64,000 nucleotides of DNA, from positions 3,472,501-3,536,500 of the forward strand of contig NZ_CP040094.1 of NCBI RefSeq assembly GCF_013343235.1, written 5' to 3'. The notes beneath the pieces were generated by a model. It searched no databases. It was not told where the DNA came from and saw only the letters and a list, made by a program, of their open reading frames with translations. Origin of the DNA: Nostoc sp. TCL240-02 (GTDB lineage: Bacteria; Cyanobacteriota; Cyanobacteriia; Cyanobacteriales; Nostocaceae). This document shows positions 486-44,092 of the stretch, one piece after another (position 1 is the first letter of the stretch; the number at the start of each line of letters is the position of its first letter). The position numbers and the translations under genes are program-made.

Positions 486-2084
486 TTAGCACTGAGATAA
501 ACACTGCTGGTAATAGTTAACAATTTGTGCCGTGACTTCAGACACATCCAAACCATCAGTTTGAACTTCAATGGCATCTGCTGCTTTTTGCAAAGGCGAA
601 ACTTTGCGTGTGCTATCTTTCCAATCACGTTCGGCAATATCCCGTTCTAGCTGCTCTAAATTGATTGCAGATTGACCTTGTTTGTGAAAGTCTTCCTGGC
701 GGCGACGGGCGCGTTCACTCACAGAAGCAGTTAAGAAGATTTTGACTTCGGCATCGGGGAAAACGTGAGTACCAATATCTCGCCCTTCAGCGACTAAACC
801 ACCTTTTTTACCCCAGCTTTGTTGTTGTTTAACCAGTGCTTGACGGACAGCGCTTTGGGCTGCGATCGCAGATACTTGAGATGTCACCTCAATGGTGCGA
901 ATTACCTGGGTAACATCAGTACCGTTAATCCAAACCCGCACAGACGATTGTAAATCCTGGGTAGGAGTAAGTTCAATTTTACACAGGTTAGTTAATTCAG
1001 CGATCGCACACTCATCATCAATAGCAATCCCCTTTTGCAGTACAAGCCAAGTGACAGCACGGTACATTGCTCCTGTATCTAAATAGACTAAACCTAGATT
1101 TGCTGCCACTTGCCGCGCCACTGTAGATTTTCCAGCCCCGGCGGGGCCATCAATGGCGATGATGGGTTGACGATCGCGCAAGATGATATTGTCAATCAAA
1201 CGTGTAGAACCAAGACGGGCTGCGATCGCCAACATTCCTTCCTCCTCAACTTTTTCTAAAGACATCAACGTAGTCGGATCAACTAATTCAATATATTCCA
1301 CTAAAATCGTGCTGACTATTGCCACTTCTTGCTGTACCACTGCTATCAACTTGTTACTATTGCGATCGCCTGCAATAAATGCAGCTTCAGCCCGTTGCAA
1401 GCCGCGATATAATGCTGCCGCTTGTTCTTTTGCCGTTGCAGTCAAATATTGATTACGAGAACTGAAGGCAAGACCCGACGCTTCCCGCACTGTTGGACAA
1501 GCAACAATTTCTACTGGCAAATTTAAGTCAGCTACTAAGCGTTTAATAATTGCCAGTTGCTGACCATCTTTTTGACCAAAGTAGGCACGGTCAGGCTGTA
1601 CCAAGTTGAAAAGCTTGGTAACAATCGTAGCCACACCTTGAAAGTGACCCAGGCGAGAACGACCACACAAGCCTGTCATCATAGCAGATGGGGGTATAAC
1701 TTGTGTAACCTTTGATTCTTGTATACTCTTCTGGGGAACTGCCATCTCTTCAGGAGTCGGTGCAAAAATGGCATCTACCCCAGCTTGTTCGCAAAGTTTT
1801 TGGTCTTGCTCTAAAGTCCGGGGGTAGCGTTGGTAATCCTCATTGGGAGCAAATTGCAGGGGATTGACGAAAATACTCACAATCACCGTAGAATTTTCTT
1901 GCCGCGCCCGTTGGATCAAGCTTAAATGACCTTGATGCAAATTCCCCATCGTTGGTACTAGACCGACTGCCGTCTGATACCAGCCAGTTATCTCATCTAG
2001 TCTTAGATCCTCAGTAACCGCGTTTTCTGAGCAGCGTTTAGTTAAATAGCAGCGTAAAGCTGCGACTGTTGTCAGCAGGCGCAC
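486..2084 (-). CDS. panC/cmk: Bifunctional pantothenate synthetase / cytidylate kinase
   Basis: The N-terminal half (about residues 1-300) condenses pantoate with beta-alanine using ATP, the last step of pantothenate (CoA) synthesis. The C-terminal half (about 310-530) phosphorylates CMP and dCMP. The PanC nucleotide-binding motif MGNLHQGHL is at about residues 46-54, followed by FVNPLQF and YFGQKD. The kinase P-loop [10 protein letters not shown] is near residue 315, followed by [10 protein letters not shown]. This fusion is the usual cyanobacterial form and 532 residues is the expected length, so no truncation is apparent. The ATG start puts the PanC domain at the very N-terminus. The gene stands alone between a long empty stretch and a divergent 7-base repeat tract. 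Both enzymes act in the cytoplasm. Confidence 0.95.
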
Positions 2085-2177
2085 AAAAATACCCCTAGTT
2101 CTTATCGATCCCTCCCCCGTTAGTTTATATCTGAAACAGAGGGAAGAGTTGATTGAACTAGGGGAATTAAGTGATAC

Positions 2178-2262
2178 GGAACTGGGAATTGGGAATTGGG
2201 AATTGGGAATTGGGAACTGGGAATTGGGAACTGGGAATTGGGAACTGGGAATTGAAAAATGA
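2178..2262. repeat. 7-base short tandem repeat tract (STRR)
   Basis: About eleven copies of a heptamer of the form GGGAATT or GGGAACT follow one another between panC/cmk and the RlpA-like gene. Heptanucleotide repeats of this kind are typical of Nostoc/Anabaena intergenic DNA. Related, shorter tracts occur near 6626-6655, 27590-27655, 29397-29480, 46864-46976 and 63716-63760. The function is unknown and copy number probably varies between strains. Confidence 0.85.
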
Positions 2263-2340
2263 GAGACTTTTTTAATAATTTTTCTTTCTATACAAAGTCT
2301 CAGTCCTAGTCACCAGTCACCAATCCCCAGTCCCTAATAA

Positions 2341-3453
2341 TTATTTTCCCAAAACTTCAATATGTACTGGTGCAACACCACTACCCATCATTCCCAAAAC
2401 TCGAGCCGCGCCAGCAGATACGTCAATGACTCGACCCCGAATGTATGGGCCTCGGTCATTAATTCGCAGCACTACAGAACGACCGTTGCGGGTATTGGTT
2501 ACACGGACTTGCGTACCAAAGGGTAAGCTGCGATGAGCAGCAGTCATTGCTTCTGGGTTGAATCTCTGACCGCTTGCAGTCTGAGTACCAGAACCGTCAT
2601 AGCCGTAATAAGAAGCCATGCCTCTCAAAGTGGCTTGCACTACTCCAACGGCAATCTGTTGAGGCAGCTTTGGTATTGAGACTGGTTGACGGACTGGTAG
2701 ATTAGCAATTTCTTTTAGGGGAGATGCATTGCCAAGAAGTCTCCGCAGGCGATTAGTTGCTTGCAATGCATCTTCTGCCAAATTGTTGGTGGGATTGGTC
2801 TGTGCTAGTCGTGTAGCTTCGTTGATTTCGACCAATTCTTCGCCATTAATTTTGATTACATAGCGATCGCCATCTTGCTGGGAGGGAGCGCTTTTGTTTT
2901 GTGCTTGATTGGCATTAGATTTTTCCCCTGCTTTCCAACTGACGGTAATTTTACTGCCGTCTACACTTTCCCGATTCAACTGATTGATCTTAGCTGCTAC
3001 TACACCAGCCATCTGAACCGGGTCATTGTCAGAGGAGCTAATCTGGTTACTCACATCTGTTACGTCGTCAGCATTCAGTGCCTTTGGTGAATTGCTAGCA
3101 GCAATAAGGGCGTACCCTTGTACGCCCCCAGTATTTCCAATTGCACCAACTTTTTTAGATTCAAAATTCGTATTTGATACAGAACTCAAAAAGGTGAGAA
3201 CAGGTATATTTCGGATAAAAAGGGTTGCCGCCTTACGTCCTCTAATGTTGTGAGGATGAATTTCTGTAATCACAGCATCCAAGGTTTGTCTCCCTGTTCT
3301 GGATTGGTACTCTCCCACCTTAACCACATCAGGGGCAGGTGATTTTTGGGATGCTAGAGCATTTCCCTTGGTGGTTTGAGTACAACCGACTGAAGGTATG
3401 CCCAAAACAGCCATAGACAGGGCAACAATAATCCACAAATGTCTTTGATTCAT
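2341..3453 (-). CDS. RlpA-like septal ring lytic transglycosylase family lipoprotein
   Basis: The C-terminal 95 residues form an RlpA double-psi beta-barrel: GMASYYGYDGSGTQTASG is followed by HRSLPFGTQVRV and NDRGPYI. RlpA proteins are cell-envelope proteins that in some bacteria cleave peptidoglycan lacking stem peptides. The N-terminus has a hydrophobic segment ending in a lipobox-like SVGC (about residues 21-24), so the protein is probably a lipoprotein. The long middle part (about 40-270) is poorly conserved and is likely a linker or a cyanobacterium-specific domain. At 370 residues it resembles other cyanobacterial members, which are longer than the core domain. The family call is firm; the enzymatic activity is inferred from homology only. 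Confidence 0.85.
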   Translation of the reverse strand: MNQRHLWIIVALSMAVLGIPSVGCTQTTKGNALASQKSPAPDVVKVGEYQSRTGRQTLDAVITEIHPHNIRGRKAATLFIRNIPVLTFLSSVSNTNFESKKVGAIGNTGGVQGYALIAASNSPKALNADDVTDVSNQISSSDNDPVQMAGVVAAKINQLNRESVDGSKITVSWKAGEKSNANQAQNKSAPSQQDGDRYVIKINGEELVEINEATRLAQTNPTNNLAEDALQATNRLRRLLGNASPLKEIANLPVRQPVSIPKLPQQIAVGVVQATLRGMASYYGYDGSGTQTASGQRFNPEAMTAAHRSLPFGTQVRVTNTRNGRSVVLRINDRGPYIRGRVIDVSAGAARVLGMMGSGVAPVHIEVLGK

Positions 3454-4312
3454 GCGTCCGTTTTTGAAAGCGACTGTAGAACTTTAAGTTTTATAAATTG
3501 CGGGATTTTTCACTCGTAAAAGTGATCTCCCTTCTGAAAAACTCGAACTCGTTCCGTTTTCACTTTGTTATTTATAACTCGCAACAGACTAACACGAACC
3601 TTTTCGCTTGGGGATCAGGGTTTTAGCGTAATTATCGACTACTTAATCAAATTAAAGTTCCAAATTTAAGGTTGAAACCTTTCTCAAAGGCGGACTTTGG
3701 CTATGTAACGCTTTTTTCTGCAACTCAAAAATTTCTTAAAAAAACTTTACGCTTGTTGCACACCAAAGTAACGACACCCTATTGACTTCTGTTCTAAAGG
3801 CTCACTAATACTCGTGTATTTTAGATAACATGTATTTTCACTATTTCCTATAAGAAGATAATATAACTTTAATTAAATGACATCGGCATAAATACTTAAA
3901 ATCGTTTATTTAATAAAATATTTAGATTTCCCCATGAATAAGTCGTGATATGAGTTACATCTACAATAATTATGCAAATTAGTTTGAGTTTAAGATGTTT
4001 TTTCTACTTAGATTAATCATGACTTTTATTCCCCATGACTAAACGTAGAAGAGTGATAAATATAACTTGCAATTACCGTATTACTGAGTATAAAATAAAG
4101 AAGTATACTCAACTTAATATTTCTTGTGATTAATGATGAAAAAATTAGGAAATCTTCGCGATCGCTTGTAGATCAACTTTTAGCGGTATCAAAAATAACA
4201 ATAGCCATTTTTGGTACTAAGTAATTGCTCAAGGATGATTTTTTAGAGCAAGCTATCTTGTCCAAAATCTTTGCGGCTGTAAGTATGTACGGCTGCACCC
4301 CTACTATATATA
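3454..4312. other. Long AT-rich intergenic region between divergent genes
   Basis: About 860 bases separate the start of the RlpA-like gene from the start of glsA on the other strand, so both promoters must lie here. The DNA is AT-rich with a HIP1-like GCGATCGC near 4159. No convincing small gene or structured RNA was recognised. An open frame running from 4225 overlaps glsA in another frame and has no homology I recognise. Confidence 0.5.
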
Positions 4313-4342
4313 GTGAGTATTTTGGGGAGTGCTATCACCGTG

Positions 4343-5326
4343 ATGACAAGCCAAGTAAATCAAAGAGATTTAGAAATAGATTCATCGCCATTATTAGCTG
4401 TTCTTCAGGAATTGCATTCTCAGTACAAGTTACTGCAAGAGGGTGCAGTAGCGAAATATATTCCAGAATTGGCCAAGGTAAACCCGGATTTGTTCAGCAT
4501 TTGCATTGTCACAGTAGATGGTCAGATTTACAAAGTTGGCGATTACGACCAACTCTTTACCATTCAGTCGATTTCCAAAGTGTTTGCTTATGGACTTGCC
4601 TTAGAAGATCATGGACTGGATTACGTTTTAACTAGAGTTAGCGTAGAACCGACGGGCGATGCATTCAACGCGATCGTTTTAGATGAGCAATCGAAGCGAC
4701 CTTATAACCCAATGGTAAACGCTGGTGCGATCGCAACCACTAGCTTAATCAAAGGTTCTGGTCCAACGGAACGTCTTAACCGAATGCTGGATATGTACAA
4801 GCGATATATCGGCCGGGACGTGTTCGTTGACATTTCAGTTTTTACCTCAGAACGCAGTACCGGACATCGCAACCGTGCAATGGCGCATCTGATGCTCAAC
4901 TTTGGTATGATTGACCGGAATATTGAAGAGTCGCTGGATCTTTATTTCCAGCAATGTGCTGTGATAGTGAATTGCGAAGACTTAGCAGTGATGGCGGCTA
5001 CTCTAGCTAACAAAGGTATGAACCCCATCACCAAAGAACAGGCGGTAGATAAGCGTTACATCAAAGATATTCTGAGTGTGATGTATACCTGTGGAATGTA
5101 CAACTTTGCAGGTGAGTGGGCTTATAAAATTGGTATTCCGGCAAAAAGTGGAGTTTGTGGTGGGATTATCGCCGTTGTACCCAATAAGATGGGTATTGGG
5201 GTTTTTTCGCCCCTGCTAGATGTGCGTGGTAATAGTGTGCGCGGGGTGAAGGTATGTGAAGAACTTTCCCAAAGGTTAGGTTTACATCTATTTGATTGTT
5301 CAGGACAAGAGGCGAAATTTGATTGA
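4343..5326 (+). CDS. glsA: Glutaminase A
   Basis: Hydrolyses glutamine to glutamate and ammonia in the cytoplasm. It belongs to the serine-dependent beta-lactamase-like glutaminase family. The catalytic Ser-x-x-Lys motif is seen in the stretch [16 protein letters not shown]. Other family blocks are [11 protein letters not shown], the [13 protein letters not shown] segment and the glycine-rich [14 protein letters not shown]. About 327 residues is normal for the family (300-330). The frame is open back to a GTG at 4313, but the ATG at 4343, preceded by GGGGAG 12 bases upstream, gives a normal N-terminus and was chosen. In a diazotroph the enzyme could recycle the glutamine that heterocysts export; that role is inference. 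Confidence 0.93.
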
Positions 5327-5649
5327 AGAACAGTTTGACAGTTCATATAGTTGCTGTCTAATCAGACTAATAACAAGACCTCTCCCTGGTTTTGCTAGGC
5401 AAAATCTGTCCTTCTCCGAGGCGGAGAGGGAAAAATCGGAACACAAGGTTAAGGCAGGGAAAGGTTTATCGAACTCTCGTTTATCTATATGTTTATCTAT
5501 ATATAGATATAGTCAACAAACTCTAAATTATCTCTCTTCGCGTGTCCTCAAGTTACAGCTATTTTCAGGTAAATAGACCACGCTGTAGGGGCAATTCATG
5601 AATTGCCCCTACGACAGATGTGCTTCAAATATATGAAAACTGCTGTAAT
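5327..5649. other. Intergenic region with repeat elements
   Basis: This 320-base gap between converging glsA and the DUF1838 gene holds a dispersed repeat (5375-5450, with CTTCTCCGAGGCGGAGAGGG-like pairing arms) and the perfect palindrome at 5585-5612. No gene is supported. Confidence 0.5.
5585..5612. repeat. Perfect 28-bp palindrome, likely bidirectional terminator or dispersed repeat
   Basis: The arms GTAGGGGCAATTCA and TGAATTGCCCCTAC pair perfectly with no loop. It lies between two converging genes, glsA (+) and the DUF1838 gene (-). It could end both transcripts, but there is no clear T-run, and similar GGGGCAATTC palindromes are dispersed repeats in Nostoc genomes. Confidence 0.7.
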
Positions 5650-6465
5650 TTACAACTCTTCTGCTTGGGGAAGTGGGAAGATTTCACCAGCTAAGTAAGC
5701 CTCAAAGTGCTTTTGAAAGTACAACCAGGAAGTCATATCTTCTCCATCTATCAATGCTTTTGGAGCTTGTTTATATAGAGGAATACGGTTATTAATTTCG
5801 TCTTGCAGCAGTGAGGGCAGTTCTGTTAAACCATTGACTTTACTGCCAACAGCACTGTAGATTAGTTGACCGGGGCGATCGCCCATTTTCATCCAAGGAA
5901 GCCATTGACCAATACGATCCCAACTCAGTTTGAGTTCAGAAACTGAGGGAAGCGCTGAGTTGAATAAATCTGCGGTTGGCACAGTCAATTTAAACAATTC
6001 TGCCGCCTGATAAATTGGATTTGGGCTATATTCGGCAAATTTGCGATCGTCTGCTAGGGGATTGGGGTAATAGGGAAATATGTCAAAAACGAAGGTTGTG
6101 CTGTCACCATCTACTTGTGCGGGGAAATTTCCCTCAAACTTCCCCTGCACTGGATTATTGGCAACGTGAATTACTGGAACTGTCTCGCTTGTCCAAGGAT
6201 TCTCCCATTTGCGTAAGATTTCATCTGTTTTTGGGTTGAGGTAGTAAGTCAGTTCTCTAGAAGTAAAATCCCAGCTACCCTCTGCTGTGGGAATACATCG
6301 GCTAACACTCAATCCCAGGATTTTAAATAGGAGTTGTCTTTTCTCGCCGGGGATAAAGGCATAAATCTTACCTTTCCAAATCAGGAAAGTTGATTCGCTA
6401 GGGTCGAGGGAAGAACGAGTTTTAACCCAGTGCTGCGCTTCAAGTTCTTGGATTTGAGCAACCAT
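5650..6465 (-). CDS. DUF1838 family protein
   Basis: I recognise the overall pattern of the DUF1838 family, found in cyanobacteria and some proteobacteria, whose biochemical role is not established. Visible features are an N-terminal FLIWKGKIYAFIPGEKRQLLF strand-rich region, a DPKTDEILRKW-like segment (here NPKTDEILRKWENPW) and a tryptophan-rich C-terminal part (GQWLPWMKMGDRPGQLIYSA, then SWLYFQKHFEAY). No signal peptide or membrane segment is visible, so it is probably cytoplasmic. 271 residues is near family length. It is a single gene with its own upstream space and no evident operon partner, so the context does not suggest a function. Confidence 0.7.
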   Translation of the reverse strand: MVAQIQELEAQHWVKTRSSLDPSESTFLIWKGKIYAFIPGEKRQLLFKILGLSVSRCIPTAEGSWDFTSRELTYYLNPKTDEILRKWENPWTSETVPVIHVANNPVQGKFEGNFPAQVDGDSTTFVFDIFPYYPNPLADDRKFAEYSPNPIYQAAELFKLTVPTADLFNSALPSVSELKLSWDRIGQWLPWMKMGDRPGQLIYSAVGSKVNGLTELPSLLQDEINNRIPLYKQAPKALIDGEDMTSWLYFQKHFEAYLAGEIFPLPQAEEL

Positions 6466-6541
6466 CTAAAGCATCCTTAGTGTTTGGATAACAAAAGGAT
6501 AAGCTAACCAGCATTCAAGTTGCATTTTTGTCATTTGTCAT

Positions 6542-6650
6542 TTGTCAAAAACTAATGCCCCATACTTCTCTACGAGAGGCTATGCTTCTCCAAAGGAGTA
6601 CGACTGCGCTCAGTACCAGTGCCTAATTCCCAATTCCCAATTCCCAATAC
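6542..6650. repeat. Dispersed intergenic repeat cluster
   Basis: Copies of GTCATTTGTCA, a palindromic module (ACGAGAGGCTATGC followed by GCGCTCAGTACCAG) and an AATTCCC heptamer tract fill the gap between two minus-strand genes. The same modules recur near 20757-20800, 26420-26480 and 44140-44190, so this is repeat DNA rather than a gene. Confidence 0.65.
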
Positions 6651-6659
6651 CTTCATCAA

Positions 6660-7844
6660 TTAAACTGATTCAGAAAGTTGCTCATCTAGACGGCGAAACA
6701 AAAATACCCAAAGAGGTAGGGAACTATTAATCGCAATTAGTCGCACTAAATGACCAGTTGTCACAATTTCAACATTATGATTTAATGCCAGGGAAACCAA
6801 GATCATTTCTGCCGATCCTCCTGGTGCTGTGACTAGCAAACAGGTTAACCAATCCCAAGAGGTGAATTGCATCGCAAGTATAGCAGCGATCGCTCCGGCG
6901 ATGAGGGTCATCCCTACAGACATCAAGGCATAGCCGACAGTCCGCTTCTGAAAGTTGGGTTTGTCTCCCCAATACTCACCAATAGTAATTCCCAGGAGCA
7001 TTTGACCCAATAAGTTAATTAAAGGCGGCGGACTAAAACTAATATCACCCACAAAAGGCAGCCAATGTAGCAAAGGATTAAACCCGATACCAATCAACAA
7101 TGCACCAAAGAAATCGCCTGCGGGAATTTTAAATAATATAGCTGGATAAACTACTAATGCAGTGATTAGGAGTATTAACAAGAGTAATTCTAGTTGAGAT
7201 GGATCGAGATTGAGCCAATCAGGGTTGATTGGGAGCGTTTGCGGGTAGTAATTACTGGCTGATGTCTTAGCGATGAAGGGGATCAAAACAACTACTGAAG
7301 TGACGCGAATCGCCTGAACTAGGGCAACTAAGCTGACATTTTTATTGTAATCGGCTGCGATCGCTGCCATAATTCCGACACCACCAGGAACAGTAGCCAG
7401 CATTGCTGTTAATAGGTTGGTTTTGCTGAGGCGGGCATACATATAACCAATACAACTTCCACTCAGCAGGAGAAACAAGGTCAGAAAAATAAATATGGGA
7501 ATACCAGAAGCAACACTAGCTAGATTACCGTGGGTATTGGAAGCGCCGACAGTTAAGCCTACAAGTGCCATTCCCACTTTTCTGGCAGTGCGATTAGGCT
7601 GGGGAGAATATTGATAAAAAATTCGACACCCTTGAAGAACTACCGTACCAGCAGCAATCCCGCCAAATATCCAGGCAATCCTGCCAATTTGGAACTTGGC
7701 GAGGAGTAAACCCAGAGGTAATGCCAGAAGCATTTCCAAGACGAGGACAATTAGTTGCTTCGTAAATACCTGTTGTTTGTTGACAACAGGATTTTCATGA
7801 GTGTGTTCTTCCAGGCTGGGAGCAACACTTAGGCTTTGATTCAT
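6660..7844 (-). CDS. AbrB family membrane protein (putative ammonia monooxygenase-like transporter)
   Basis: This 394-residue protein has about ten hydrophobic segments arranged as two similar halves, each with a glycine-rich turn. The halves are marked by TVPGGVGIMAAIAADYN and VTAPGGSAEMILVSLALN, the duplicated PGG...E/IM signature of the AbrB (AbrB_dup) family. The family was once annotated as ammonia monooxygenase, but that activity is unproven; a transport or regulatory role in the inner membrane is more likely. The soluble N-terminal 25 residues precede the first segment. The length is normal. It sits alone in the minus orientation, and nothing nearby indicates a substrate. Confidence 0.85.
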   Translation of the reverse strand: MNQSLSVAPSLEEHTHENPVVNKQQVFTKQLIVLVLEMLLALPLGLLLAKFQIGRIAWIFGGIAAGTVVLQGCRIFYQYSPQPNRTARKVGMALVGLTVGASNTHGNLASVASGIPIFIFLTLFLLLSGSCIGYMYARLSKTNLLTAMLATVPGGVGIMAAIAADYNKNVSLVALVQAIRVTSVVVLIPFIAKTSASNYYPQTLPINPDWLNLDPSQLELLLLILLITALVVYPAILFKIPAGDFFGALLIGIGFNPLLHWLPFVGDISFSPPPLINLLGQMLLGITIGEYWGDKPNFQKRTVGYALMSVGMTLIAGAIAAILAMQFTSWDWLTCLLVTAPGGSAEMILVSLALNHNVEIVTTGHLVRLIAINSSLPLWVFLFRRLDEQLSESV

Positions 7845-29485: not shown

Positions 29486-30931
29486 CTAATTCCCTAATTC
29501 CTTAACGTATTGCTCGTAAAACTCTAAAGCAACCTTCTCAATTACGTCGTAAGCTTCAACAGTCTTGATTCCAGCTTCTTGCAATTTTTCTTGAGGACAG
29601 TTACCAATCTTGGAAACTAAAACTGCTTTGCAATCTGCGATCGCTTTCATAATATGCTCAAAGGAAGCTTCTTCGCCGTATCCACCTTGGCAGTATTGGT
29701 CAATTTTGCGATGGCTGACAAAGCGAACTTCGTTTCCACCCACTTCGTAAATTTGGAATTCTTTCGCATGACCGAAGTGTTGGTTAACCAATCCGCCGCC
29801 TTTGGTTGCTACTGCAACTAAAACTTTTGGACTATTGGCAATTTTCTTACCAGCTAGTGCCTTATCTTTAGCTACTTTAAGTTCTTCTTTAAACTTCTCA
29901 ATTCCTTCGTGAACAGTAGCGCGTTGTTCCATGTCATATTCGGGAGCCATTTCCAAGAATTTCTCTTTGGAAAACTCTTGACTGCGGTCTTCTCCCAATA
30001 ATCCGACTGCATCGGCACGGCACTGGCGACAGTGACGCATCATTTTCATGTTACCAGAGCAGTTATCTTGAACTTCTTTGAGTTCTTTAGGTGTGGGGCC
30101 GCGTTGACCGGTTAAACCGAAGTGTGTACCATGTTCTGGTGCAGAAATCAATGGCATGATGTTGTGCAAGAATGCACCTTTCTCACGGATGACTCGATTC
30201 ACTTCGACTAAGTGCTGGTCATTAATTCCGGGAATCATCACGGAGTTAACTTTGCACAAGATATCAGCATCTTTCAGGGCTTGCAATCCTTCCATCTGTC
30301 TTTCATGGAGGATTTTCGCACCTTCAAGACCTCTGTAACGCTTGCGTCTGTAGTGAACCCAAGGATAAATCTTAGCACCGATCTCTGGATCTACCATGTT
30401 AATGGTGATCGTCACGTGATCTATATTTAATTGTTTAATGCGATCGATGTAGTCAGGCAGCATTAAACCATTGGTTGATAAGCACAGCTTAATATCTGGT
30501 GCTTGCTCTGCAATCAACTCAAATGTGCGGAAGGTTTTTTCTGGGTTCGCCAATGGGTCGCCAGGGCCAGCAATTCCCACGACTGTCATTTGGGGAATCT
30601 TGCCACCAATGACCAAAGCTTTGTGTGCAGCTTCTTCTGGTGTTAGCAATTCGCTAACTACTCCAGGACGGCTTTCGTTAGCGCAATCATATTTGCGGTT
30701 GCAATAGTTGCATTGAATGTTGCAAGCAGGAGCAACTGCAACGTGCATCCGGGCATAGTGGTGATGAGCGTCTTCGCTGTAGCAGGGATGTTTAGCAATG
30801 CGTTCTTGGAGCTTTTCGTCCCTTTCCACGGTGGTGCTGGTGGTGCTATCGCAGCCGCAACCACCTGATTTTGCTTGGGTTGGCGATTCCGTAGCGTTGG
30901 AGTTGAGGAGTCGTGTAGACGGTGATGTCAT
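29486..30931 (-). CDS. nifB: NifB, radical SAM FeMo-cofactor precursor synthase
   Basis: NifB fuses two 4Fe-4S clusters with carbide and sulfide into the NifB cofactor. The radical SAM motif lies in [15 protein letters not shown]; other landmarks are [14 protein letters not shown] and [15 protein letters not shown]. The C-terminal 120 residues form a NifX-like domain ([27 protein letters not shown]). The start at the ATG 30931 gives 481 residues, the usual length. The frame stays open for another 59 codons, but that part (to 31108) has no homology I recognise. The mapped promoter-like core at 31290-31318 implies a leader of about 350 bases. Confidence 0.96.
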
Positions 30932-31289
30932 TGAGTTTCGCAAAAGGTCGGTGGACTTGGCTGCCACTGTGGGAGATGCTGTTGCTACTCTTTCATGCCC
31001 AGAATTGAAGTCGCGTCTTCCACACTGCCTGCAAACCCTTGGGTGAGGGCGACTTGTTTTCAAGTCAGGCAGACGATAGATATCTGATGTTCGGCTGGTG
31101 TGTGTCAACGTTCGGTTCTTGGGTAGAATTTGTGCTTACAGCCGCGACTTCTCTTCACTTCAGGCATGGTGCTATGTCATCCCTCCACTCACCCTTCGCT
31201 TTGTTTTGTTTCAGAGCGTTAGGTGATTGGCGATATAAGATTTATAGCAGCTATCTCCCAGCCAGATGTTGCGTCTCTCTAGGATAGAA
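30932..31289 (-). other. Long nifB leader
   Basis: About 350 bases between the promoter-like core (31290-31318) and the nifB ATG. The first 59 codons upstream are open in the nifB frame, including [14 protein letters not shown], but with no ribosome binding site that I can defend. The sequence could be an untranslated leader with regulatory structure. Confidence 0.4.
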
Positions 31290-31318
31290 TTTATTGGATT
31301 TATTACTTTTGTACTCAA
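31290..31318 (-). promoter_or_regulatory. nifB promoter core
   Basis: On the minus strand TTGAGT (31313-31318) is followed after exactly 17 bases by AATAAA (31290-31295), a plausible -35/-10 pair. The same hexamers with the same 17-base spacing, and about 80 percent identical spacer, occur upstream of nifP at 43231-43259. The match between two nif genes is the main evidence. Confidence 0.6.
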
Positions 31319-31376
31319 ATACTAAAAACCCTAATTCTTCAAGCATTACAAGAATTAAAAAAGTTTTTTTCAGGTA

Positions 31377-31427
31377 GGGGTTCTAGTATTTTTTGGTTGG
31401 GGTTCTAGTGTTTATAGATAGGGGTTC
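31377..31427 (-). promoter_or_regulatory. Three CCCC boxes at 22-bp spacing upstream of nifB
   Basis: On the plus strand GGGGTTC begins at 31377, 31399 and 31421, exactly 22 bp apart. The two gene-proximal boxes extend to GGGGTTCTAGTATTT and GGGGTTCTAGTGTTT. Read in the nifB direction this is ACTAGAACCCC repeated. The same three-box layout occurs upstream of nifP. A binding site for a nif activator such as CnfR is the likely meaning; this is inference. Confidence 0.65.
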
Positions 31428-31429
31428 AG

Positions 31430-31927
31430 GATTTCTTTGTACTCAGCTAAAACTCAATCTCAGCAAGGAATTTAATCTAATTCTAACTGGATTTGAGTTA
31501 TTAAAATGTGTACTCAGATCGCCCTCAATTTCCGTCAAAAGCAAGATATGCCAAGGGGTTGAGGGTGAAAAACTGGAGTAGTCTACATCGTTCTACTCCA
31601 GAAACGTGCGAAATTCAATTCTGTATCTAACATATCATTTTTTTGAGGGTAAAAATGCAATTCATATTTATTTAATTTTTGCTTTGACAATCATATTCAA
31701 TTGTGGTTCTAAGTCTTGTCTGATAAGCGATGTGAGGTAATGAAAATAGGTGTGTTGCTGCATATCATTTTCAAAAAACTTAACTTTTAACTCTTTTTTT
31801 TCATTCCCACAATGAGGAGATGGGTAAGAAACTGTTGGATTTTGTGTTTAAGAGAAACAACAAACTATAATCTAACATGATTGAGCGATCGCAATGAATT
31901 TTCTGAATTGCTCACTACAAACCTTAA
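31430..31927. other. Gene-free region upstream of nifB
   Basis: About 500 AT-rich bases between the nifB boxes and the terminator of the sugar dehydrogenase gene. No supported gene or RNA structure was seen. Confidence 0.45.
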
Positions 31928-34332: not shown

Positions 34333-37300
34333 ATGCCAAACTTCTTAGTTATTTGGGGTGTAACTCAGGCCGCCGGGTTGATTTTTAAACCCATTTTGGA
34401 AGACTTAGCCAAGGATGCTGCTAAAGATTGGGCTAAAGATTTATTAAAAGGCATCCCTGGCAATATTTTAGAGAAACTTAAGAAAGAAGACATAGAAATC
34501 GCTGCTGGGAAAGCTTTAAAAGAATTTTTACAACTGGTGCAGGAAGATTTAAAAGGTGGAGAACTTTCTGAAGATGAAATCAAAAAGTATACGCAGCCGA
34601 TAAAGCAATTTCTCAAAGTTCAAGAAGTCAAAGAAATTTTGGGAAATGCCTTTAAAGATAATAATCCAGCTATAGATACTAATAGATTACAAGAAATTTG
34701 GGATAAACTTAATGTTTCAAATCCGTTACCAGATGATTTTAACTGGAAGCGGGTTGCGAAGAAATATCTGCAAAAGGTTAAAGAGATTATTCAAGGTATT
34801 CCTGAACTCAGAGATATTCACGATTCCCAAAATCTGGATAAAATCAAAGACATCTTAGAAGGCAATGCTCAGAAAATTACCACATTTGATTTAGTTAAAT
34901 ATCAAGAAGGAATCCGCGAACGCTATGGCAATCTCAAGTTAGATAGTTTAGATACTAGCGGTTATGCCTATAATGAACTGAAATTATGGCGGATTTTTAC
35001 TGCTCAAAATGTCCGGGAAACTCATCAAGTTTTAGCACAAGTTCACGAACTGCCTAAAGAACATCTGAGACGGCTACGAGAAAACGACCAAGTAGAAGCT
35101 GTTGAATTAGAAGAATTAGAACGCCACAAACGGGTTTATATTGAACAGCCGCTCCATTCTGTTTTAGATGTTGTCAATAAAAAGCAAGATTATAAATATA
35201 TTGTCATTTTGGGCGATCCTGGTTCCGGTAAGTCTACATTGTTGCAATTTATGGCTTTGAATTGGGCTGAGTCACCACTGGATAATGTTATGTCTTTACC
35301 AATTCCCTTGCTAATTGAGTTACGCACTTATATGCGGCGACGGGAAGATAAAGAGTGCAATAATTTTCTCGAATTCTTCCATCAATGTAGTGGTGCAATT
35401 CATCATCTTAATCAGCTTGAAGTAGATAAACAATTAAAAGCTGGTAATGCCTTAGTGATGTTTGATGGTTTAGATGAGGTATTTGACCCTGGTAAGCGAG
35501 AGGATGTAATTACTGATATTCATCGCTTTACTAATGACTATCCTGATGTGCAGGTAATTGTCACTTCTCGGATTATTGGCTATAAACCGCAACGATTGCT
35601 TAATGCTGAGTTTCGCCACTTTATCTTACAAGATTTAGACTCAGAACAAATTCAGGATTTTATCTACCGTTGGCATCAGTTAACTTTTACCGATGCTGTA
35701 GATAAAGTCAGAAAACGGGAACGGCTAAAAAGAGGAATTGCAGCTTCCAAATCTATTGCAGAATTGGCGGGAAATCCTCTGCTGTTGACGATGATGGCAA
35801 TTCTTAATCGGAATCAAGAGCTACCAAGAGATAGAGCCGAGCTTTATAATCAAGCATCGCGGGTACTGCTACATCAATGGGATGTGGAGCGCGTTTTGAT
35901 TGAAGATAAGAGGTTAGACCCTAAGACTATTGATTATAAAGATAAGCAAGCGATGCTGCGTCAGGTTGCTTTTCTGATGCAAACTGGTGATAAAGGTTTG
36001 ACTGGTAATTTGATTAATGAAAATGATTTAGTCAAAGTTCTGACTGATTATCTCAAAACCATAGAATTTGATAAACCCAGAGAAGTTGCAAAGGTGATGA
36101 TTAATCAACTGCGGACTCGCAACTTTATGTTATGTTTCGTGGGTGCGGATTATTATGCTTTTGTGCATCGGACATTTTTAGAATATTTCTGTGCTTGGGA
36201 GTTTGTTTGGCAGTTTAAAGAAACGCAAACGCTGACTATTGAGAAACTTAAGAATGAAGTTTTTGGCAAACACTGGCAAGATGAAAGTTGGCATGAAGTC
36301 TTGCTGCTAATTGCGGGAATGATTGAGCCAAGATTCGTTGGCGAGATTCTTGATTATTTAATGGCACAAGATGGCGAAGAGGAAAAGTTTGTCAATCTCT
36401 TTTTAGCGGCTAATTGTCTTGCAGAGGTGAGAAATCGCTCGGCGATCGCGTCAACTGCTACTAAATTATTTAACAAGCTACAAGACCTAACTAAATATGA
36501 CCTCTGGTACTATTACAACCCTCAGCCACTTAATGGAGAAGAAACTAAGCTAGTACAGAAAATTTGCACTCAAGCAGTCACAGCAATTGCAACGACCTGG
36601 CAAGAATCTCCTAACACCAAAACCTGGCTCAAAGAACGCGCTACCCAGGATGATTACTACTATGTGCGATATACAGCAGTCCAAGAATTAGCGAATCACT
36701 TCAAAGATGACCCCGACACCAAAACCTGGCTCAAAGAACGCGCTACTCAGGATGATGACAATGATGTGCGATATACAGCAGTCCAAGAATTAGCGAAGAA
36801 TTTCAAAGATGACCCTGACACCAAAACCTGGCTCAAAGAACGCGCTACACAGAATGATGATAACCTTGTGCGATATATAGCAGTCCAAGAATTAGCGAAG
36901 AATTTCAAAGATGACCCCGACACCAAATCCATTCTCAAAGAACACGCTACCCAAGATGATAATTGGGATGTGCGACGTACAGCAGTCCAAGAATTAGCGA
37001 AGAATTTCAAAGATGACCCCGACACCAAATCCATTCTCAAAGAACACGCTACCCAAGATGATAATTGGGATGTGCGACGTACAGCAGTCCAAGAATTAGC
37101 GAATCACTTCAAAGATGACCCCGACACCAAATCCATTCTCAAAGAATACGCTACCCAGGATGATAACAATGATGTGCGAATTGCAGCAGTCCGAGAATTA
37201 GCAAATTACTTCAAAGATGACCCCGAAACCAAATCCATCCTCAAAGAACGCGCTACCAAGGATGATGACAATGATGTGCGGATTGCAGCAGTCCGAGAAT

Positions 37301-38151
37301 TAGCGAATTACTTCAAAGATGACCCCGACACCAAATCCATTCTCAAAGAATGCGCTACCCGAGATGATTACTACTATGTGCGATATGTAGCAGTGCAAGA
37401 ATTAGCGAATCACTTCAAAGATGACCCCGAAACCAAATCCATTCTCAAAGAATGCGCTACCCAGGATGATTACTACTATGTGCGATATGTAGCAGTCCAA
37501 AAATTAGTGAATCACTTCAAAGATGACCCCGACATCAAAACTTGGCTCAAAGAATGCGCTACCCATGATGATAACCTTGTGCGATATATAGCAGTCCAAG
37601 AATTAGCGAATCACTTCAAAGATAACCCCGATATCAAAATCTGGCTCAAAGAACGCGCTACCGAGAATGATGACAACTATGTACGATGTGCAGCAGTCCA
37701 AGGATTAGCGGACAACTTCAAAGATGACCCCGACACCAAATCCATCCTCAAAGAATGCGCTACCCATGATGATAACCTTGTGCGATATATAGCAGTCCAA
37801 GGATTAGCGGACAACTTCAAAGATGACCCCGACACCAAATCCATCCTCAAAGAATGCGCTACCCATGATGATAACTGGGATATGCGACGTGCAGCAGTCC
37901 AAGAATTAGGTAAATACTTTAAATATCAGCTTGAGTTGTTTAACATCTACCACAACTGTGCTGTTAATGACCCCTTTGAGCGCAAGGAAGAGGATGAAAC
38001 TAATCCTCGGCGCATTGCACTAGAAATAATTCTCAAGCAATTTCCTCAGCATGACCAGACTTTACCACTGTTGCGCGATCGCGCCGAGAATGATCCAGAT
38101 GAGCAAGTGCGGGAATTTGCTCAGAAGAAGTTAAAGCAGTTGGAAGGGTAA
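34333..38151 (+). CDS. NACHT-domain NTPase with C-terminal HEAT-like repeats
   Basis: A 1272-residue STAND-type NTPase. Residues about 1-280 are a helical N-terminal region without a recognised effector domain. The NACHT core starts at VILGDPGSGKST (Walker A, about 292-302), followed by ALVMFDGLDEVFD (Walker B, about 373-385), VIVTSRIIGY and the winged-helix part with NPLLLTMMAILNR and FVHRTFLEYFCAWEF. From about residue 757 to 1196 there are 13 units of 33-34 residues with the pattern DDPDTKSILKERATQDD..VR.AAVQELA.HFK, HEAT-like and nearly identical. Bacterial NACHT proteins are innate-immunity sensors against phage, and the repeats are the likely sensing region; the defence role here is inferred. 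It stands in an accessory island beside toxin-antitoxin debris. Confidence 0.88.
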   Translation: MPNFLVIWGVTQAAGLIFKPILEDLAKDAAKDWAKDLLKGIPGNILEKLKKEDIEIAAGKALKEFLQLVQEDLKGGELSEDEIKKYTQPIKQFLKVQEVKEILGNAFKDNNPAIDTNRLQEIWDKLNVSNPLPDDFNWKRVAKKYLQKVKEIIQGIPELRDIHDSQNLDKIKDILEGNAQKITTFDLVKYQEGIRERYGNLKLDSLDTSGYAYNELKLWRIFTAQNVRETHQVLAQVHELPKEHLRRLRENDQVEAVELEELERHKRVYIEQPLHSVLDVVNKKQDYKYIVILGDPGSGKSTLLQFMALNWAESPLDNVMSLPIPLLIELRTYMRRREDKECNNFLEFFHQCSGAIHHLNQLEVDKQLKAGNALVMFDGLDEVFDPGKREDVITDIHRFTNDYPDVQVIVTSRIIGYKPQRLLNAEFRHFILQDLDSEQIQDFIYRWHQLTFTDAVDKVRKRERLKRGIAASKSIAELAGNPLLLTMMAILNRNQELPRDRAELYNQASRVLLHQWDVERVLIEDKRLDPKTIDYKDKQAMLRQVAFLMQTGDKGLTGNLINENDLVKVLTDYLKTIEFDKPREVAKVMINQLRTRNFMLCFVGADYYAFVHRTFLEYFCAWEFVWQFKETQTLTIEKLKNEVFGKHWQDESWHEVLLLIAGMIEPRFVGEILDYLMAQDGEEEKFVNLFLAANCLAEVRNRSAIASTATKLFNKLQDLTKYDLWYYYNPQPLNGEETKLVQKICTQAVTAIATTWQESPNTKTWLKERATQDDYYYVRYTAVQELANHFKDDPDTKTWLKERATQDDDNDVRYTAVQELAKNFKDDPDTKTWLKERATQNDDNLVRYIAVQELAKNFKDDPDTKSILKEHATQDDNWDVRRTAVQELAKNFKDDPDTKSILKEHATQDDNWDVRRTAVQELANHFKDDPDTKSILKEYATQDDNNDVRIAAVRELANYFKDDPETKSILKERATKDDDNDVRIAAVRELANYFKDDPDTKSILKECATRDDYYYVRYVAVQELANHFKDDPETKSILKECATQDDYYYVRYVAVQKLVNHFKDDPDIKTWLKECATHDDNLVRYIAVQELANHFKDNPDIKIWLKERATENDDNYVRCAAVQGLADNFKDDPDTKSILKECATHDDNLVRYIAVQGLADNFKDDPDTKSILKECATHDDNWDMRRAAVQELGKYFKYQLELFNIYHNCAVNDPFERKEEDETNPRRIALEIILKQFPQHDQTLPLLRDRAENDPDEQVREFAQKKLKQLEG
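36604..37920 (+). repeat. 102-bp in-frame tandem repeats of the NACHT gene
   Basis: Thirteen units follow each other. Unit marks (GATGACCCC-type) occur at 36706, 36808, 36910, 37012, 37114, 37216, 37318, 37420, 37522, 37621, 37723 and 37822, so the period is 102 bp with two 99-bp units. Units starting at 36910 and 37012 differ only in the last few bases, which shows recent duplication. Variation is concentrated at the seven positions between ATQ and the AAVQ helix. Confidence 0.9.
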
Positions 38152-41559: not shown

Positions 41560-42589
41560 TAGCGGTTATCAGTCTTGTGAGGTACAGTAGCAGCAGTGAG
41601 TAAACCAACCCAGCAAATTCTCTATTGTCACTTCTGCGAATGCCGTATCTAATGCCTGGAGTAAATCAGGGTATGTCCTTGCACCGATGCGACGGAGAAT
41701 GTTCTTAATCTTGGACCAACAATTCTCAATCGGTGAAAAATCGGGAGAATAGGGGGGGAGATAAATGAGATGAGCGCCAGCAGCGATGAGCAAAGCTTCA
41801 AGTTCATCACTTTTATGGATTGAGCAGTTATCCATGATCACCACTGCACCAGGCCAAAGTTTGGGTACGAGCTTTTGGGCGATGAAGGCATCAAAAGTCA
41901 AAGCATCGATAGAACCTAAGCCACTCCATTGGGTGAGCAGTCCTTTCAAGCTAATTGCACCAATTACCGAGACATTTTTCCCTTTGCGGTTGGGCTTTTG
42001 AGCATAGGCCCGAAGGCCAGGCAAGGCGCGGGCACATTTGCGGATGAAGGACAGATTAACTCCCGATTCATCTAAGAAAATCAGCTCTTCGACGGGTATC
42101 CCCCTCAAGAGTTTCCAGTACTCAAATCGGGCTAGTTGGACTTCATCACTACCTTTTTTTGTGAGGTGGAGACTTTTTTTTTGAGGTTGAGGTGAAGTTT
42201 CCAGCGAACCATCCGATTCACCGTAGCTACCCCAATTAAGACCTCTGTTTTCTCGTAAAGTCGTTCCCGCAATTCGCTTAACGTCGCATCGGGCTGTGCT
42301 ATGACGAGTTGGCGCAGGATTTCTAACTGTTCAGCATTCAACTTTGTTGCTGTCTGCTCAGTCCGCACCTTGGGGCCTATCATCCCCAATTCTCGATGGC
42401 GTTTGAGTAAATTTTGCACAAAACTTAAGGTGACACCAAAGTTTTTAGCCAGTTTTCGTTGGGAAATGTCACCGCAGGCATAAGCATCAACTATTTTTTG
42501 ACGCAAGTCGAGAGAGTAGGCTTTCATCACCACCAATTATCAGTAGAATTGCTCTCTCCTACTGTACTGAAGTAGACTGATAACCGCTA
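41560..42589 (-). mobile_element. Intact IS630 family insertion sequence
   Basis: The element is about 1.03 kb. Its ends share the 17-bp perfect inverted repeat TATAGCGGTTATCAGTC (counting the flanking TA), with further matching GTACAGTAG inside. It is bounded by the TA duplication expected for IS630 (41558-41559 and 42590-42591). Removing it restores a 21-bp repeat unit of the host array. It encodes a two-frame transposase and looks recently active. Confidence 0.93.
41569..42536 (-). CDS. IS630 transposase made by -1 frameshifting
   Basis: The first frame (42536-42132, 134 residues) holds the DNA-binding helix-turn-helix domains: SLDLRQKIVDAYACGDISQRKLAKNFGV. The second (visible from 42108 to 41569, open further upstream) holds the DDE catalytic domain: FLDESGVNLSF, VIMDNCSIHKS and LPPYSPDFSPIENCWSKIK, which carry the D, D and E residues. 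Near the end of the first frame lies A AAA AAG (the codons CAA AAA AAG on the minus strand), a classical -1 slippery heptamer. Slippage there joins the frames as KKGSDEVQLARFEYWKLLRG, giving one transposase of about 320 residues. Confidence 0.9.
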
Positions 42590-42721: not shown

Positions 42722-43135
42722 GCCTCTACAAGTTTCGTGGCTAGGGTAGCATAGCTTTACGCCGCTACAGCAATCAGCAATTATTTAACTGCTATGAGAA
42801 TATCTACCTATTATGCCGCTCTAAGATTTTGTGTTGGCTATTCCCACACATCTATATAATAAGAAAACAGTCGCTACGAGCTATAACTATATTTTGAAAC
42901 GTATATCTGCATACAGACAGCAAATCCTAAAAGAAAATAAAGAAACCTGTCTTTCGCCCAACCAAATAATAGGATACTAATAGTAGTAGCATATACAAAA
43001 AATGCATTTATAGCTTCACATAACTCATATTTGAGTGCATCTGAGTACAACTTAATATATTGCAAAATATCTTGACGAAATCTTAGCAAAGGCTTACAGG
43101 TAAAGTTTCTTGTAGCGTGAACAGAAATTCTTAAC
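42722..43135. other. Intergenic region before nifP
   Basis: About 410 bases between the array and the nifP boxes. It contains one weak open frame (42874-43089) and AT-rich sequence, with no recognised RNA. Confidence 0.45.
42874..43089 (-). CDS. Possible small membrane protein
   Basis: A 71-codon frame with a hydrophobic stretch (AINAFFVYATTISILLFGWAKDRFLYFLLGFAVCMQIYV) that could form two membrane helices. No ribosome binding site of note, no recognised family, and it lies in an otherwise gene-free gap, so it may be chance. Confidence 0.25.
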   Translation of the reverse strand: MLRFRQDILQYIKLYSDALKYELCEAINAFFVYATTISILLFGWAKDRFLYFLLGFAVCMQIYVSKYSYSS

Positions 43136-43183
43136 CCCCGCCCTAAAAATACTAGTACCCCTATCGTTAAATACTAGCGCCCC
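43136..43183 (+). promoter_or_regulatory. Three CCCC boxes at 22-bp spacing upstream of nifP
   Basis: CCCC begins at 43136, 43158 and 43180, exactly 22 bp apart. The two gene-proximal boxes are AAATACTAGTACCCC and AAATACTAGCGCCCC. The layout, spacing and orientation match those upstream of nifB (31377-31427), which makes a shared activator site likely. Confidence 0.65.
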
Positions 43184-43230: not shown

Positions 43231-43259
43231 TTGAGTACAACTGTAATCAATCCAATAAA
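43231..43259 (+). promoter_or_regulatory. nifP promoter core
   Basis: TTGAGT (43231-43236), 17 bases, then AATAAA (43254-43259), matching the core upstream of nifB in sequence and spacing. It lies 47 bases after the last CCCC box; in nifB the gap is 58 bases, one helical turn more. The nifP start codon follows 92 bases later. Confidence 0.6.
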
Positions 43260-43351
43260 TCCAATCAGCATTGGGTTTGCTATCGAGTTAGAAGTCACCT
43301 GATATAAGCATAAAAATAGCAGATGAATCTTTTACCAGATAGACATTACCG

Positions 43352-44092
43352 ATGCAACAGTCTTTAGACAGTATTAGCGATCCCCCCAGTACCAAAATGC
43401 AGGATTCTGCACATAGATCCATGCTGAAAAATTTACTCTCAGGCGTTTTTTTTGAGCCATTATTGAGTGATTTTCGCATTATTTTTGAGCGCGATCCCGC
43501 AGCACGGAATTGGCTAGAGGTGGTGTTTTGCTACCCCGGATTGCACGCACTCTGTTTGCATCGTCTTGCTCACTGGTTACATGGTCGAGGAGTGGGTTTT
43601 ATCCCCCGTTTCATTTCCCACTTGGGGAGATTTTTGACGGGAATTGAAATTCACCCAGGTGCAGAGATTGGTCAGGGCGTGTTTATCGACCACGGAATGG
43701 GTGTTGTCATTGGCGAAACAGCGATCGTCGGTGACTACACACTGATTTACCAGGGCGTTACCCTTGGCGGAACTGGTAAAGAAACTGGTAAGCGTCATCC
43801 CACAGTGGGCAAAAATGCAGTGATTGGGGCGGGTGCGAAAGTTTTGGGTAATCTGCAAATTGGCGATCGCGTCCGTATTGGTGCAGGTTCCATTGTCTTG
43901 CGGGATATCCCCAATGATTGCACAGTTGTGGGCGTTCCCGGTCGAATTATTTCCCGAAATCAAAACGCCAGCCTTTCTCCTTTAGAACATGGAAAGCTAC
44001 CCGATATGGAAGCAACCGTGATTCGTTCTTTGCTCTCGCGCGTTGAGCAATTAGAAAAACAACTGCAAACTCTAGGCGTTAAGAGTCATTAG
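43352..44092 (+). CDS. nifP: Serine O-acetyltransferase of the nif cluster
   Basis: A 246-residue CysE-type enzyme that makes O-acetylserine for cysteine synthesis, thereby feeding NifS with sulfur donor. The family's hexapeptide repeats are seen in [70 protein letters not shown], with the catalytic histidine in [12 protein letters not shown] short N-terminal extension (to about residue 30) precedes the domain. It is the first gene of the plus-strand nif group and carries nifB-like upstream boxes, which supports the nifP name over a housekeeping cysE. Confidence 0.9.

What the first reader, a model, noticed from the sequence alone, without database searches (positions are those of the whole stretch)
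31290..31427. nifB and nifP share a three-box regulatory layout with exact 22-bp periodicity and a matching promoter core
Upstream of nifB (read on the minus strand) and of nifP there are three CCCC boxes exactly 22 bp apart (GGGG at 31377, 31399, 31421; CCCC at 43136, 43158, 43180). The two proximal boxes in each are extended as ACTAGNNCCCC preceded by an A/T-rich run. Both are followed by TTGAGT-N17-AATAAA with about 80 percent identity around it. The gap between boxes and core is 58 bases in nifB and 47 in nifP, different by one helical turn, so the boxes keep the same face of the DNA. In cyanobacteria the activator CnfR controls nifB and other nif genes, and these boxes are a strong candidate for its binding site. 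I did not find this layout upstream of nifH in the window.
Basis: partly seen in the sequence, partly recalled or inferred. Interest (0 to 1): 0.85.

Follow-up and report, generated by a model that had tools for sequence, protein, structure and literature searches.

The report
CnfR control element of nitrogenase genes
Two nitrogen-fixation promoters in this Nostoc-type genome carry an evenly spaced DNA element that matches the already described control region of the cyanobacterial nitrogenase activator CnfR, and the same element also stands before a third, little-studied gene group whose predicted transcript begins with a strikingly conserved RNA fold.

Summary
In detail: three CCCC boxes at 22-bp steps stand before nifB and nifP, followed by TTGAGT-N17-AATAAA. 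Comparison shows a fixed grammar. Boxes 2 and 3 lie 22 bp apart in 43 of 43 scorable nifB and 26 of 29 nifP promoters. The box-to-core distance in nifB is 59-61 or 68-72, never between, with a minimum of 5 switches on a NifB tree, so helical phase seems conserved. The element is in print as the CnfR cis-element, so it is a known kind. New to my knowledge: 85 of 99 Nostocaceae genomes hold exactly three such elements. The third (93 of 97 regions) precedes an operon of unknown function, beside cnfR and cox2 in this genome (alr2522-alr2527 of PCC 7120 by gene order). Its predicted transcript starts with a nearly invariant ~30-nt block and a three-way-junction fold, single copy, not in Rfam. No binding or transcript data were produced.

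The parts
31421..31424 (-). nifB box 1 (CCCC)
   Evidence: 3 or more C in 39 of 43 nifB promoters, step to box 2 is 22 in 28 and 23 in 8
31399..31409 (-). nifB box 2, ACTAGAACCCC
31377..31387 (-). nifB box 3, ACTAGAACCCC; pooled consensus of boxes 2 and 3 is AAATACTAGTACCCC
31510..31516 (-). TGAGTAC copy 1 of the nifB element
   Evidence: 71 bp to copy 2
31439..31445 (-). TGAGTAC copy 2; 56-57 bp from box 3 in all 39 nifB promoters where it is recognised
31311..31318 (-).
31290..31300 (-).
31240..31249 (-). extended -10 of nifB, TGCTATAAAT; predicted start near 31234, leader about 303 nt
29486..30931 (-). nifB
   Evidence: TIGR01290, 676.6 bits
43042..43048 (+). TGAGTAC copy 1 of the nifP element (copy 2 near 43116 is degenerate in the window, 5 of 8)
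43135..43139 (+). nifP box 1 (CCCCC)
43151..43161 (+). nifP box 2, ACTAGTACCCC
43173..43183 (+). nifP box 3, ACTAGCGCCCC
43231..43238 (+). TTGAGTAC copy 3 of the nifP element
43249..43259 (+). AATCCAATAAA of the nifP element
43300..43308 (+). extended -10 of nifP, TGATATAAG; predicted start near 43315
43352..44092 (+). nifP (serine acetyltransferase family)
   Evidence: TIGR01172 cysE 246.3 bits; called nifP from its promoter and nif neighbourhood

Best explanation
These are the CnfR-responsive activator elements of nifB and nifP. [quoted passage not shown] The boxes with TGAGTAC copy 2 form one rigid unit; TGAGTAC copy 3, AATCCAATAAA and the extended -10 form another; the distance between the units changes only by about one helical turn. 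Shown here: the sequence grammar, its conservation, the phase pattern, and a CnfR-type gene in this genome. From print: CnfR dependence in L. boryana and A. variabilis and the extended -10. Inferred: direct binding to these boxes, multimer binding on one face, and that this genome behaves alike.
For: Boxes 2-3 exactly 22 bp apart in 43 of 43 nifB and 26 of 29 nifP promoters (23 in 3; searched 19-25); TGnTATAA complete 49-52 bp after AATCCAATAA in 47 of 47 nifB and at 51 in 29 of 29 nifP (searched 45-57; promoters were admitted on a joint core plus -10 score of at least 13 of 17, so completeness was not required). Box 3 to TGAGTA is 59-61 (9) or 68-72 (34) in nifB and 60-61 (29 of 29) in nifP; fewest changes on the NifB tree 5, of which 4 are forced by starred branches. 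TGAGTAC copy 2 sits 56-57 bp from box 3 in 39 of 39 nifB promoters where it is recognised. CnfR-type gene L275:2652-4319 with Fer4 and HTH_3 over cut-off. Print: three conserved cis elements thought to bind CnfR, loss of two lowers nifB1 expression by 75%, extended -10 without -35 (PMC8510180); motifs I to IX recognised by CnfR, and CnfR-dependent nifB and nifP promoters (PMC5943405).
Against: No binding, footprint or transcript data exist for this genome. The paper that defines the motifs (Tsujimoto 2016) and reference 35 of PMC8510180 (Vernon 2017, name and year recalled) were not read, so the register between their motifs and these boxes is unknown. 5 of 52 nifB regions lack a recognised core and 4 more have weak boxes (one cut by its contig end); 1 of 30 nifP regions failed. 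The tree is a quick one, and two of the rows that make changes (L080, L074) have long branches. Predicted nifB leaders range from 32 to 580 nt over 47 promoters, and the mapped 5' ends come from species I could not identify in my set, so they favour but do not prove the extended -10. PMC8510180 places the elements 300-600 bp upstream of the start sites; here the boxes lie about 143-190 bp upstream of the predicted nifB start (446-493 bp upstream of the ATG), which fits only if that text means the start codon.
Confidence: 0.87

Rival explanations
1. TTGAGT-N17-AATAAA is a sigma-70-type -35/-10 promoter core, and the boxes are an ordinary upstream activator site.
For: 17-bp spacing and near-invariance of both hexamers.
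Against: AATAAA is a poor -10; AATCCAATAA is conserved as a block and is mostly AATTTAATAA or similar before the third operon; an extended -10 is complete 49-52 bp downstream in 76 of 76 promoters with a core and in 93 of 93 third-site promoters; printed 5' ends and the printed extended -10 statement fit the downstream site better.
Confidence: 0.05
2. A different regulator than CnfR (for example an NtcA-, HetR- or sigma-factor-linked protein) reads the boxes.
For: I saw no direct CnfR-DNA binding result; [quoted passage not shown]
Against: CnfR activates the L. [quoted passage not shown] the elements also occur in lineages without heterocysts, such as Lyngbya and Oscillatoria (names), which argues against HetR.
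Confidence: 0.06
3. The likeness of nifB and nifP upstream regions is only a recent promoter duplication without function.
For: Both elements are alike in the same genome.
Against: The layout is shared across distant cyanobacteria while the bases between the motifs diverge, and spacing is kept nearly to the base.
Confidence: 0.01

Closest known systems
CnfR cis-acting element of Leptolyngbya boryana nifB and nifP (Tsujimoto, Kamiya, Fujita 2016; paper not held, seen only through PMC5943405 and PMC8510180)
   Same: Upstream of nifB and nifP; several motifs (I to IX); activated by CnfR.
   Different: There nifB and nifP are divergent from one intergenic region; here they are about 12 kb apart with an element each. 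Exact motif register not compared.
CS1, CS2, CS3 of Anabaena variabilis nifB1 and nifB2 (PMC8510180; TGAGTATA and 'turquoise' motifs in PMC4284476)
   Same: Three conserved upstream elements, TGAGTA motif, extended -10 without -35.
   Different: Whether CS1-CS3 are these three boxes is not stated in the passages I saw. The 22-bp step, the one-turn rule and the third operon are not mentioned in those passages.

Membership tests
CnfR-responsive cis-element | Lies upstream of nifB or nifP in a diazotrophic cyanobacterium | tested here: met
CnfR-responsive cis-element | Several conserved motifs at fixed spacing, shared across diazotrophic cyanobacteria | tested here: met
   core plus two boxes in 43 of 52 nifB and 29 of 30 nifP regions
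CnfR-responsive cis-element | Agreement with printed motifs I-IX or CS1-CS3 base by base | not testable with these tools
   Tsujimoto 2016 is not held; figures are not held
CnfR-responsive cis-element | Downstream extended -10 and no -35 | tested here: met
   TGnTATAA complete in 47 of 47 and 29 of 29 promoters with a core; absence of a -35 was not scored separately
CnfR-responsive cis-element | Genome encodes CnfR (4Fe-4S sites plus XRE-type HTH) | tested here: met
   L275:2652-4319, 555 aa, Fer4 and HTH_3 over cut-off, with a ferredoxin gene and coxBAC beside it; identified by domains and neighbours, not by comparison with a known CnfR sequence
CnfR-responsive cis-element | Activation by CnfR and binding of CnfR | not testable with these tools
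   needs reporter or footprint

The most novel reading that the evidence does not exclude
The core CnfR regulon of heterocyst formers has three fixed entry points: nifB, nifP and a third promoter, beside cnfR-cox2 in this genome, which drives an operon of unknown function (alr2522-alr2527 type: small membrane-type protein, three small orphans, luciferase-like monooxygenase, one more orphan). Its transcript begins at about its first base with a new ~80-nt structured RNA (UAGGAUUUACGCAGAGAUUCCCCUCUACCCCCC ... GGGGGG ACUUCUUA) that works as a regulatory leader (riboswitch-like or protein-bound) or as an sRNA made only in nitrogen-fixing cells.
Probability: 0.5. Interest if true: 0.68.

Novelty: new member of a known kind. 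Interest (0 to 1): 0.47.

Why it matters
CnfR is the master activator of nitrogenase genes in cyanobacteria and matters for moving nitrogen fixation into other hosts. A base-exact grammar (22-bp boxes, whole-turn rule, extended -10) makes its mechanism testable and lets its targets be read from genomes. The third site would put an uncharacterised operon, kept in nearly all Nostocaceae genomes examined, and a conserved RNA under the same switch as nitrogenase.

Tried and rejected
Rejected: TTGAGT/AATAAA as -35/-10. Not used as evidence: the number of ACTAGNNCCCC-like words, which is at chance with one mismatch. Hairpin upstream of nifB: pairing does not exceed its shuffle control (86.4% paired, shuffles 87.2%; 202 of 500 shuffles reach the covariation score) and its folding energy is not unusual (z -1.6, 14 of 200 shuffles as good), so only its sequence conservation supports it. 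Searches for papers on an sRNA near nifB gave nothing specific in what I saw.

Rows dropped and limits: the nifB set is loci L031-L082 without L075 (51) plus the window; loci L083-L110 were not examined. The nifP set is the 30 best nifP matches of 99 genomes. Tree: 42 of 43 rows, L049 dropped for a broken translation. Models R1 and R2 used 38 and 40 of 41 prepared sequences, the window sites among them. A3 used 29 of 31 candidates (L064 and L067 dropped as misplaced). A4 used 32 of 90 leaders: of every second one, those with a 3-8 nt inner loop were left out. The 20 extra model sites were picked by hand from the visible part of the list, away from known nifP places. The count of 85 of 99 genomes and the nifB/orf121 cross-match were made by eye. 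Model searches scored only 47-150 of 1,340-5,676 first-look candidates per genome, and with stricter filters.

Not done: no protein structure prediction; no test on sequence that I could identify as Anabaena PCC 7120 or Nodularia; the third site was not examined in non-Nostocaceae genomes.

Full report
Observation. Every coordinate in the finding holds. Three CCCC boxes at exact 22-bp steps lie before nifB (minus strand) and before nifP, the two proximal ones as ACTAGNNCCCC after an A/T run, then TTGAGT-N17-AATAAA with 58 and 47 bases between. The number of ACTAGNNCCCC-like words in the window is at chance with one mismatch (10 against 7.7), but the full combination is found only at these two places and in 0 of 300 first-order Markov sequences. 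No model match at E up to 10 is listed between nifH and 26650.

Comparison. I took the upstream regions of nifB from 51 genome loci plus the window and of nifP from 30 Nostocaceae genomes including this one (the 30 best of 99). A core TGAGT[A/G] followed 16-18 bp later by AATCCAATAA, with TGnTATAA downstream (joint score at least 13 of 17), was recognised in 47 of 52 nifB and 29 of 30 nifP regions. In all 76 the TGnTATAA is complete, 49-52 bp after AATCC in nifB and 51 in every nifP. Where two boxes score at least 14 of 20 (43 nifB, 29 nifP), boxes 2 and 3 are 22 bp apart in 43 of 43 and 26 of 29 (23 in three). Box 1 is present (3 or more C) in 39 of 43 and 29 of 29, with more slack: its step is 22 in 28 and 13, 23 in 8 and 10, other in 3 and 6. 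Pooled over 330 boxes of nifB, nifP and third-site promoters the consensus is AAATACTAGTACCCC. Two more TGAGTAC copies lie upstream of box 1: copy 2 lies 56-57 bp from box 3 in the 39 of 43 nifB promoters where it is recognised, and copy 1 another 70-74 bp upstream in 37 of these 39. In the window's nifP, copy 2 is degenerate (5 of 8).

Helical phase. Box 3 to TGAGTA (searched 45-84) is 59-61 (9) or 68-72 (34) in nifB, never 62-67, and 60-61 in 29 of 29 nifP. On a quick NifB tree of 42 rows the two classes need at least 5 changes, 4 of them forced by starred branches; two of the rows concerned, L080 and L074, have long branches.

Promoter. The motif that is complete in every promoter with a core is the extended -10. 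Print says the A. variabilis nifB1 and nifB2 promoters have an extended -10 and no -35 (PMC8510180, introduction passage).

What is known. PMC8510180 (abstract, section 12 and passages) states that regions upstream of nifB1, nifB2 and L. boryana nifB have three conserved cis elements thought to bind CnfR, and names CS1-CS3. It puts them 300-600 bp upstream of the start sites; here the boxes are 143-190 bp from the predicted start and 446-493 bp from the ATG. PMC5943405 (passages) speaks of motifs I to IX recognised by CnfR and of CnfR-driven nifB and nifP promoters of L. boryana. PMC4284476 (passages) describes conserved motifs including TGAGTATA and reports that nifH1 has no promoter of its own. 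Tsujimoto 2016 is not held. From memory only, its abstract already names nifB and nifP together and claims conservation in all diazotrophic cyanobacteria. So the element is a known kind.

CnfR gene. L275:2652-4319 (G000 C1, minus) encodes 555 aa with Fer4 near the N-terminus and HTH_3 at the C-terminus, both over their cut-offs, next to a ferredoxin gene and coxBAC. It was recognised by domains and neighbours, as PMC2821919 lists patB all2512 together with alr2517-alr2524 genes, not by alignment to a known CnfR.

Third site. A sequence model of the box block (R1) and one of the core with extended -10 (R2) find in this genome the two window sites and one more, C1:4234903-4235103 (58.2 and 40.7 bits; next best 14.4 and 16.2). 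Of 99 Nostocaceae genomes 98 have R1 matches and 85 have exactly three (counted by eye; the other 14 have 0, 1, 2, 4 or 5). Of 20 further sites picked by hand and fetched, 14 precede the same six-gene order (140-aa membrane-type protein, 93, 103 and 121 aa, luciferase-like monooxygenase, 124 aa), 5 precede nifB; for the last (L214) no query protein was found, and its sequence resembles the nifP promoters. The 93-aa gene matches in 97 of 99 genomes, and 93 of these 97 regions have the element (joint score at least 27): boxes 22 bp apart in 88 and 23 in 5, core spacing 17 in 93, complete TGnTATAA at 50-52 in 93, box 3 to TGAGT 59-61 in 91 and 55 in 2 after correcting the 19 rows where box 2 had been taken for box 3. 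G349, G314, G270 and G343 failed. By gene order this is the alr2522-alr2527 group of PCC 7120 (tags listed in PMC2821919 and PMC7065334); I did not align it to PCC 7120. Print shows co-regulation: the patB-alr2524 region rises by 21 h after nitrogen step-down (PMC3141674), alr2522-alr2527 fall together with nif in a cse mutant (PMC7065334), asr2523 and alr2524 are in tables of genes lowered in the sigma-factor work (PMC4390870), asr2523 is in a nif co-occurrence module with PatB (PMC5862535); all seen as passages. The 121-aa family occurs in 35 of 214 genomes of the order, all 35 among the 69 with nifB (cross-checked by eye); in 15 of the 21 outside the family the homologue lies 14-18 kb from nifB. 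This genome has four homologues, so paralogy is possible. The 103-aa search gave 121 proteins; none of the 120 listed has a Pfam domain. None of the 7 papers found with these locus tags is among the 40 listed with 'CnfR' as a whole word, so I saw no printed link under that name; links to PatB by co-occurrence and co-expression are in print as above.

RNA at the third site. In 93 of 93 third-site promoters the block GGATTTACGCAGAGATTCCCCTCTAYCCC starts 16 or 17 bases after the TG of the extended -10, that is at about the predicted first base of the RNA. 91 of 93 continue with a C-run/G-run stem, a loop of 3-30 nt and CTTCTT; the other two show the same with another base in the runs. With up to two mismatches the block is found once per genome in 14 of 14 Nostocaceae and in 0 of 200 other genomes of the order. 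RNAalifold on 32 chosen leaders gives a three-way junction (closing stem, AGAG/CUCU hairpin, C6/G6 arm). The inner arm covaries: 27 cells with a change on both sides against 11.7 in shuffles, and 0 of 500 shuffles reach the covariation score, while sliding the partners lowers every measure; but the number of pairs with such a change is not exceptional (5 against 4.0, 152 of 500 shuffles). Closing stem, AGAG/CUCU and C6/G6 pairs hardly vary and are not tested by covariation. Related sequences can exceed shuffles without structure. One leader folds at z -3.1. No Rfam match at E up to 1. A table of predicted sRNAs of heterocystous cyanobacteria (PMC4734099, section 17) does not name it; I did not have the PCC 7120 coordinate, so it is not excluded from that table.

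Verdict. The finding is real and mostly already explained by the CnfR literature; its promoter core is misread; its phase idea is right in kind and now has comparative support; and the search for the same element led to a third, probably new, target with a conserved RNA.

Noticed in passing
L161:3405-3600 and 3935-7100 (G000:C1:4234903-4238600): Third CnfR-type element and an operon of mostly unknown proteins beside cnfR-cox2; element before the 93-aa gene's operon in 93 of 97 Nostocaceae regions.
   Followed up: partly
L161:3605-3690 (block at G000:C1:4235104-4235131): Nearly invariant ~30-nt start of that predicted transcript with a three-way-junction fold; one copy per genome in 14 of 14 Nostocaceae, no Rfam match.
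   Followed up: partly
window 31568-31637 (-): Conserved unit about 330-400 bp upstream of the predicted nifB start: TGATATGTT (extended -10 like), GATACAGAATTGAATTTCGCAC, then hairpin CTGGAGTAG/CTACTCCAG and T-run; aligned from 29 nifB loci, one strong match in this genome. Candidate ~60-nt RNA or NtcA-related site; neither covariation nor folding energy stands out.
   Followed up: partly
window 31161-31194 (-): The nifB 5' leader holds a stretch like AGTGAGTGGAGGGATGAGATAGCACCATGCC that is well conserved in most Nostocales rows of the alignment.
   Followed up: no
window 34333-38151 (+): Large NACHT protein with NNH2 N-terminal domain and many HEAT repeats between nifB and nifP, a possible defence or signalling STAND protein.
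   Followed up: no
window 41569-42536 (-): IS630-type transposase parts (HTH and DDE) in two open frames about 500 bp upstream of the nifP element.
   Followed up: no
G292, G327, G346, G358: Genomes with four or five CnfR-type elements instead of three; extra targets or second nif clusters were not looked at (G358 is 38% contaminated).
   Followed up: no
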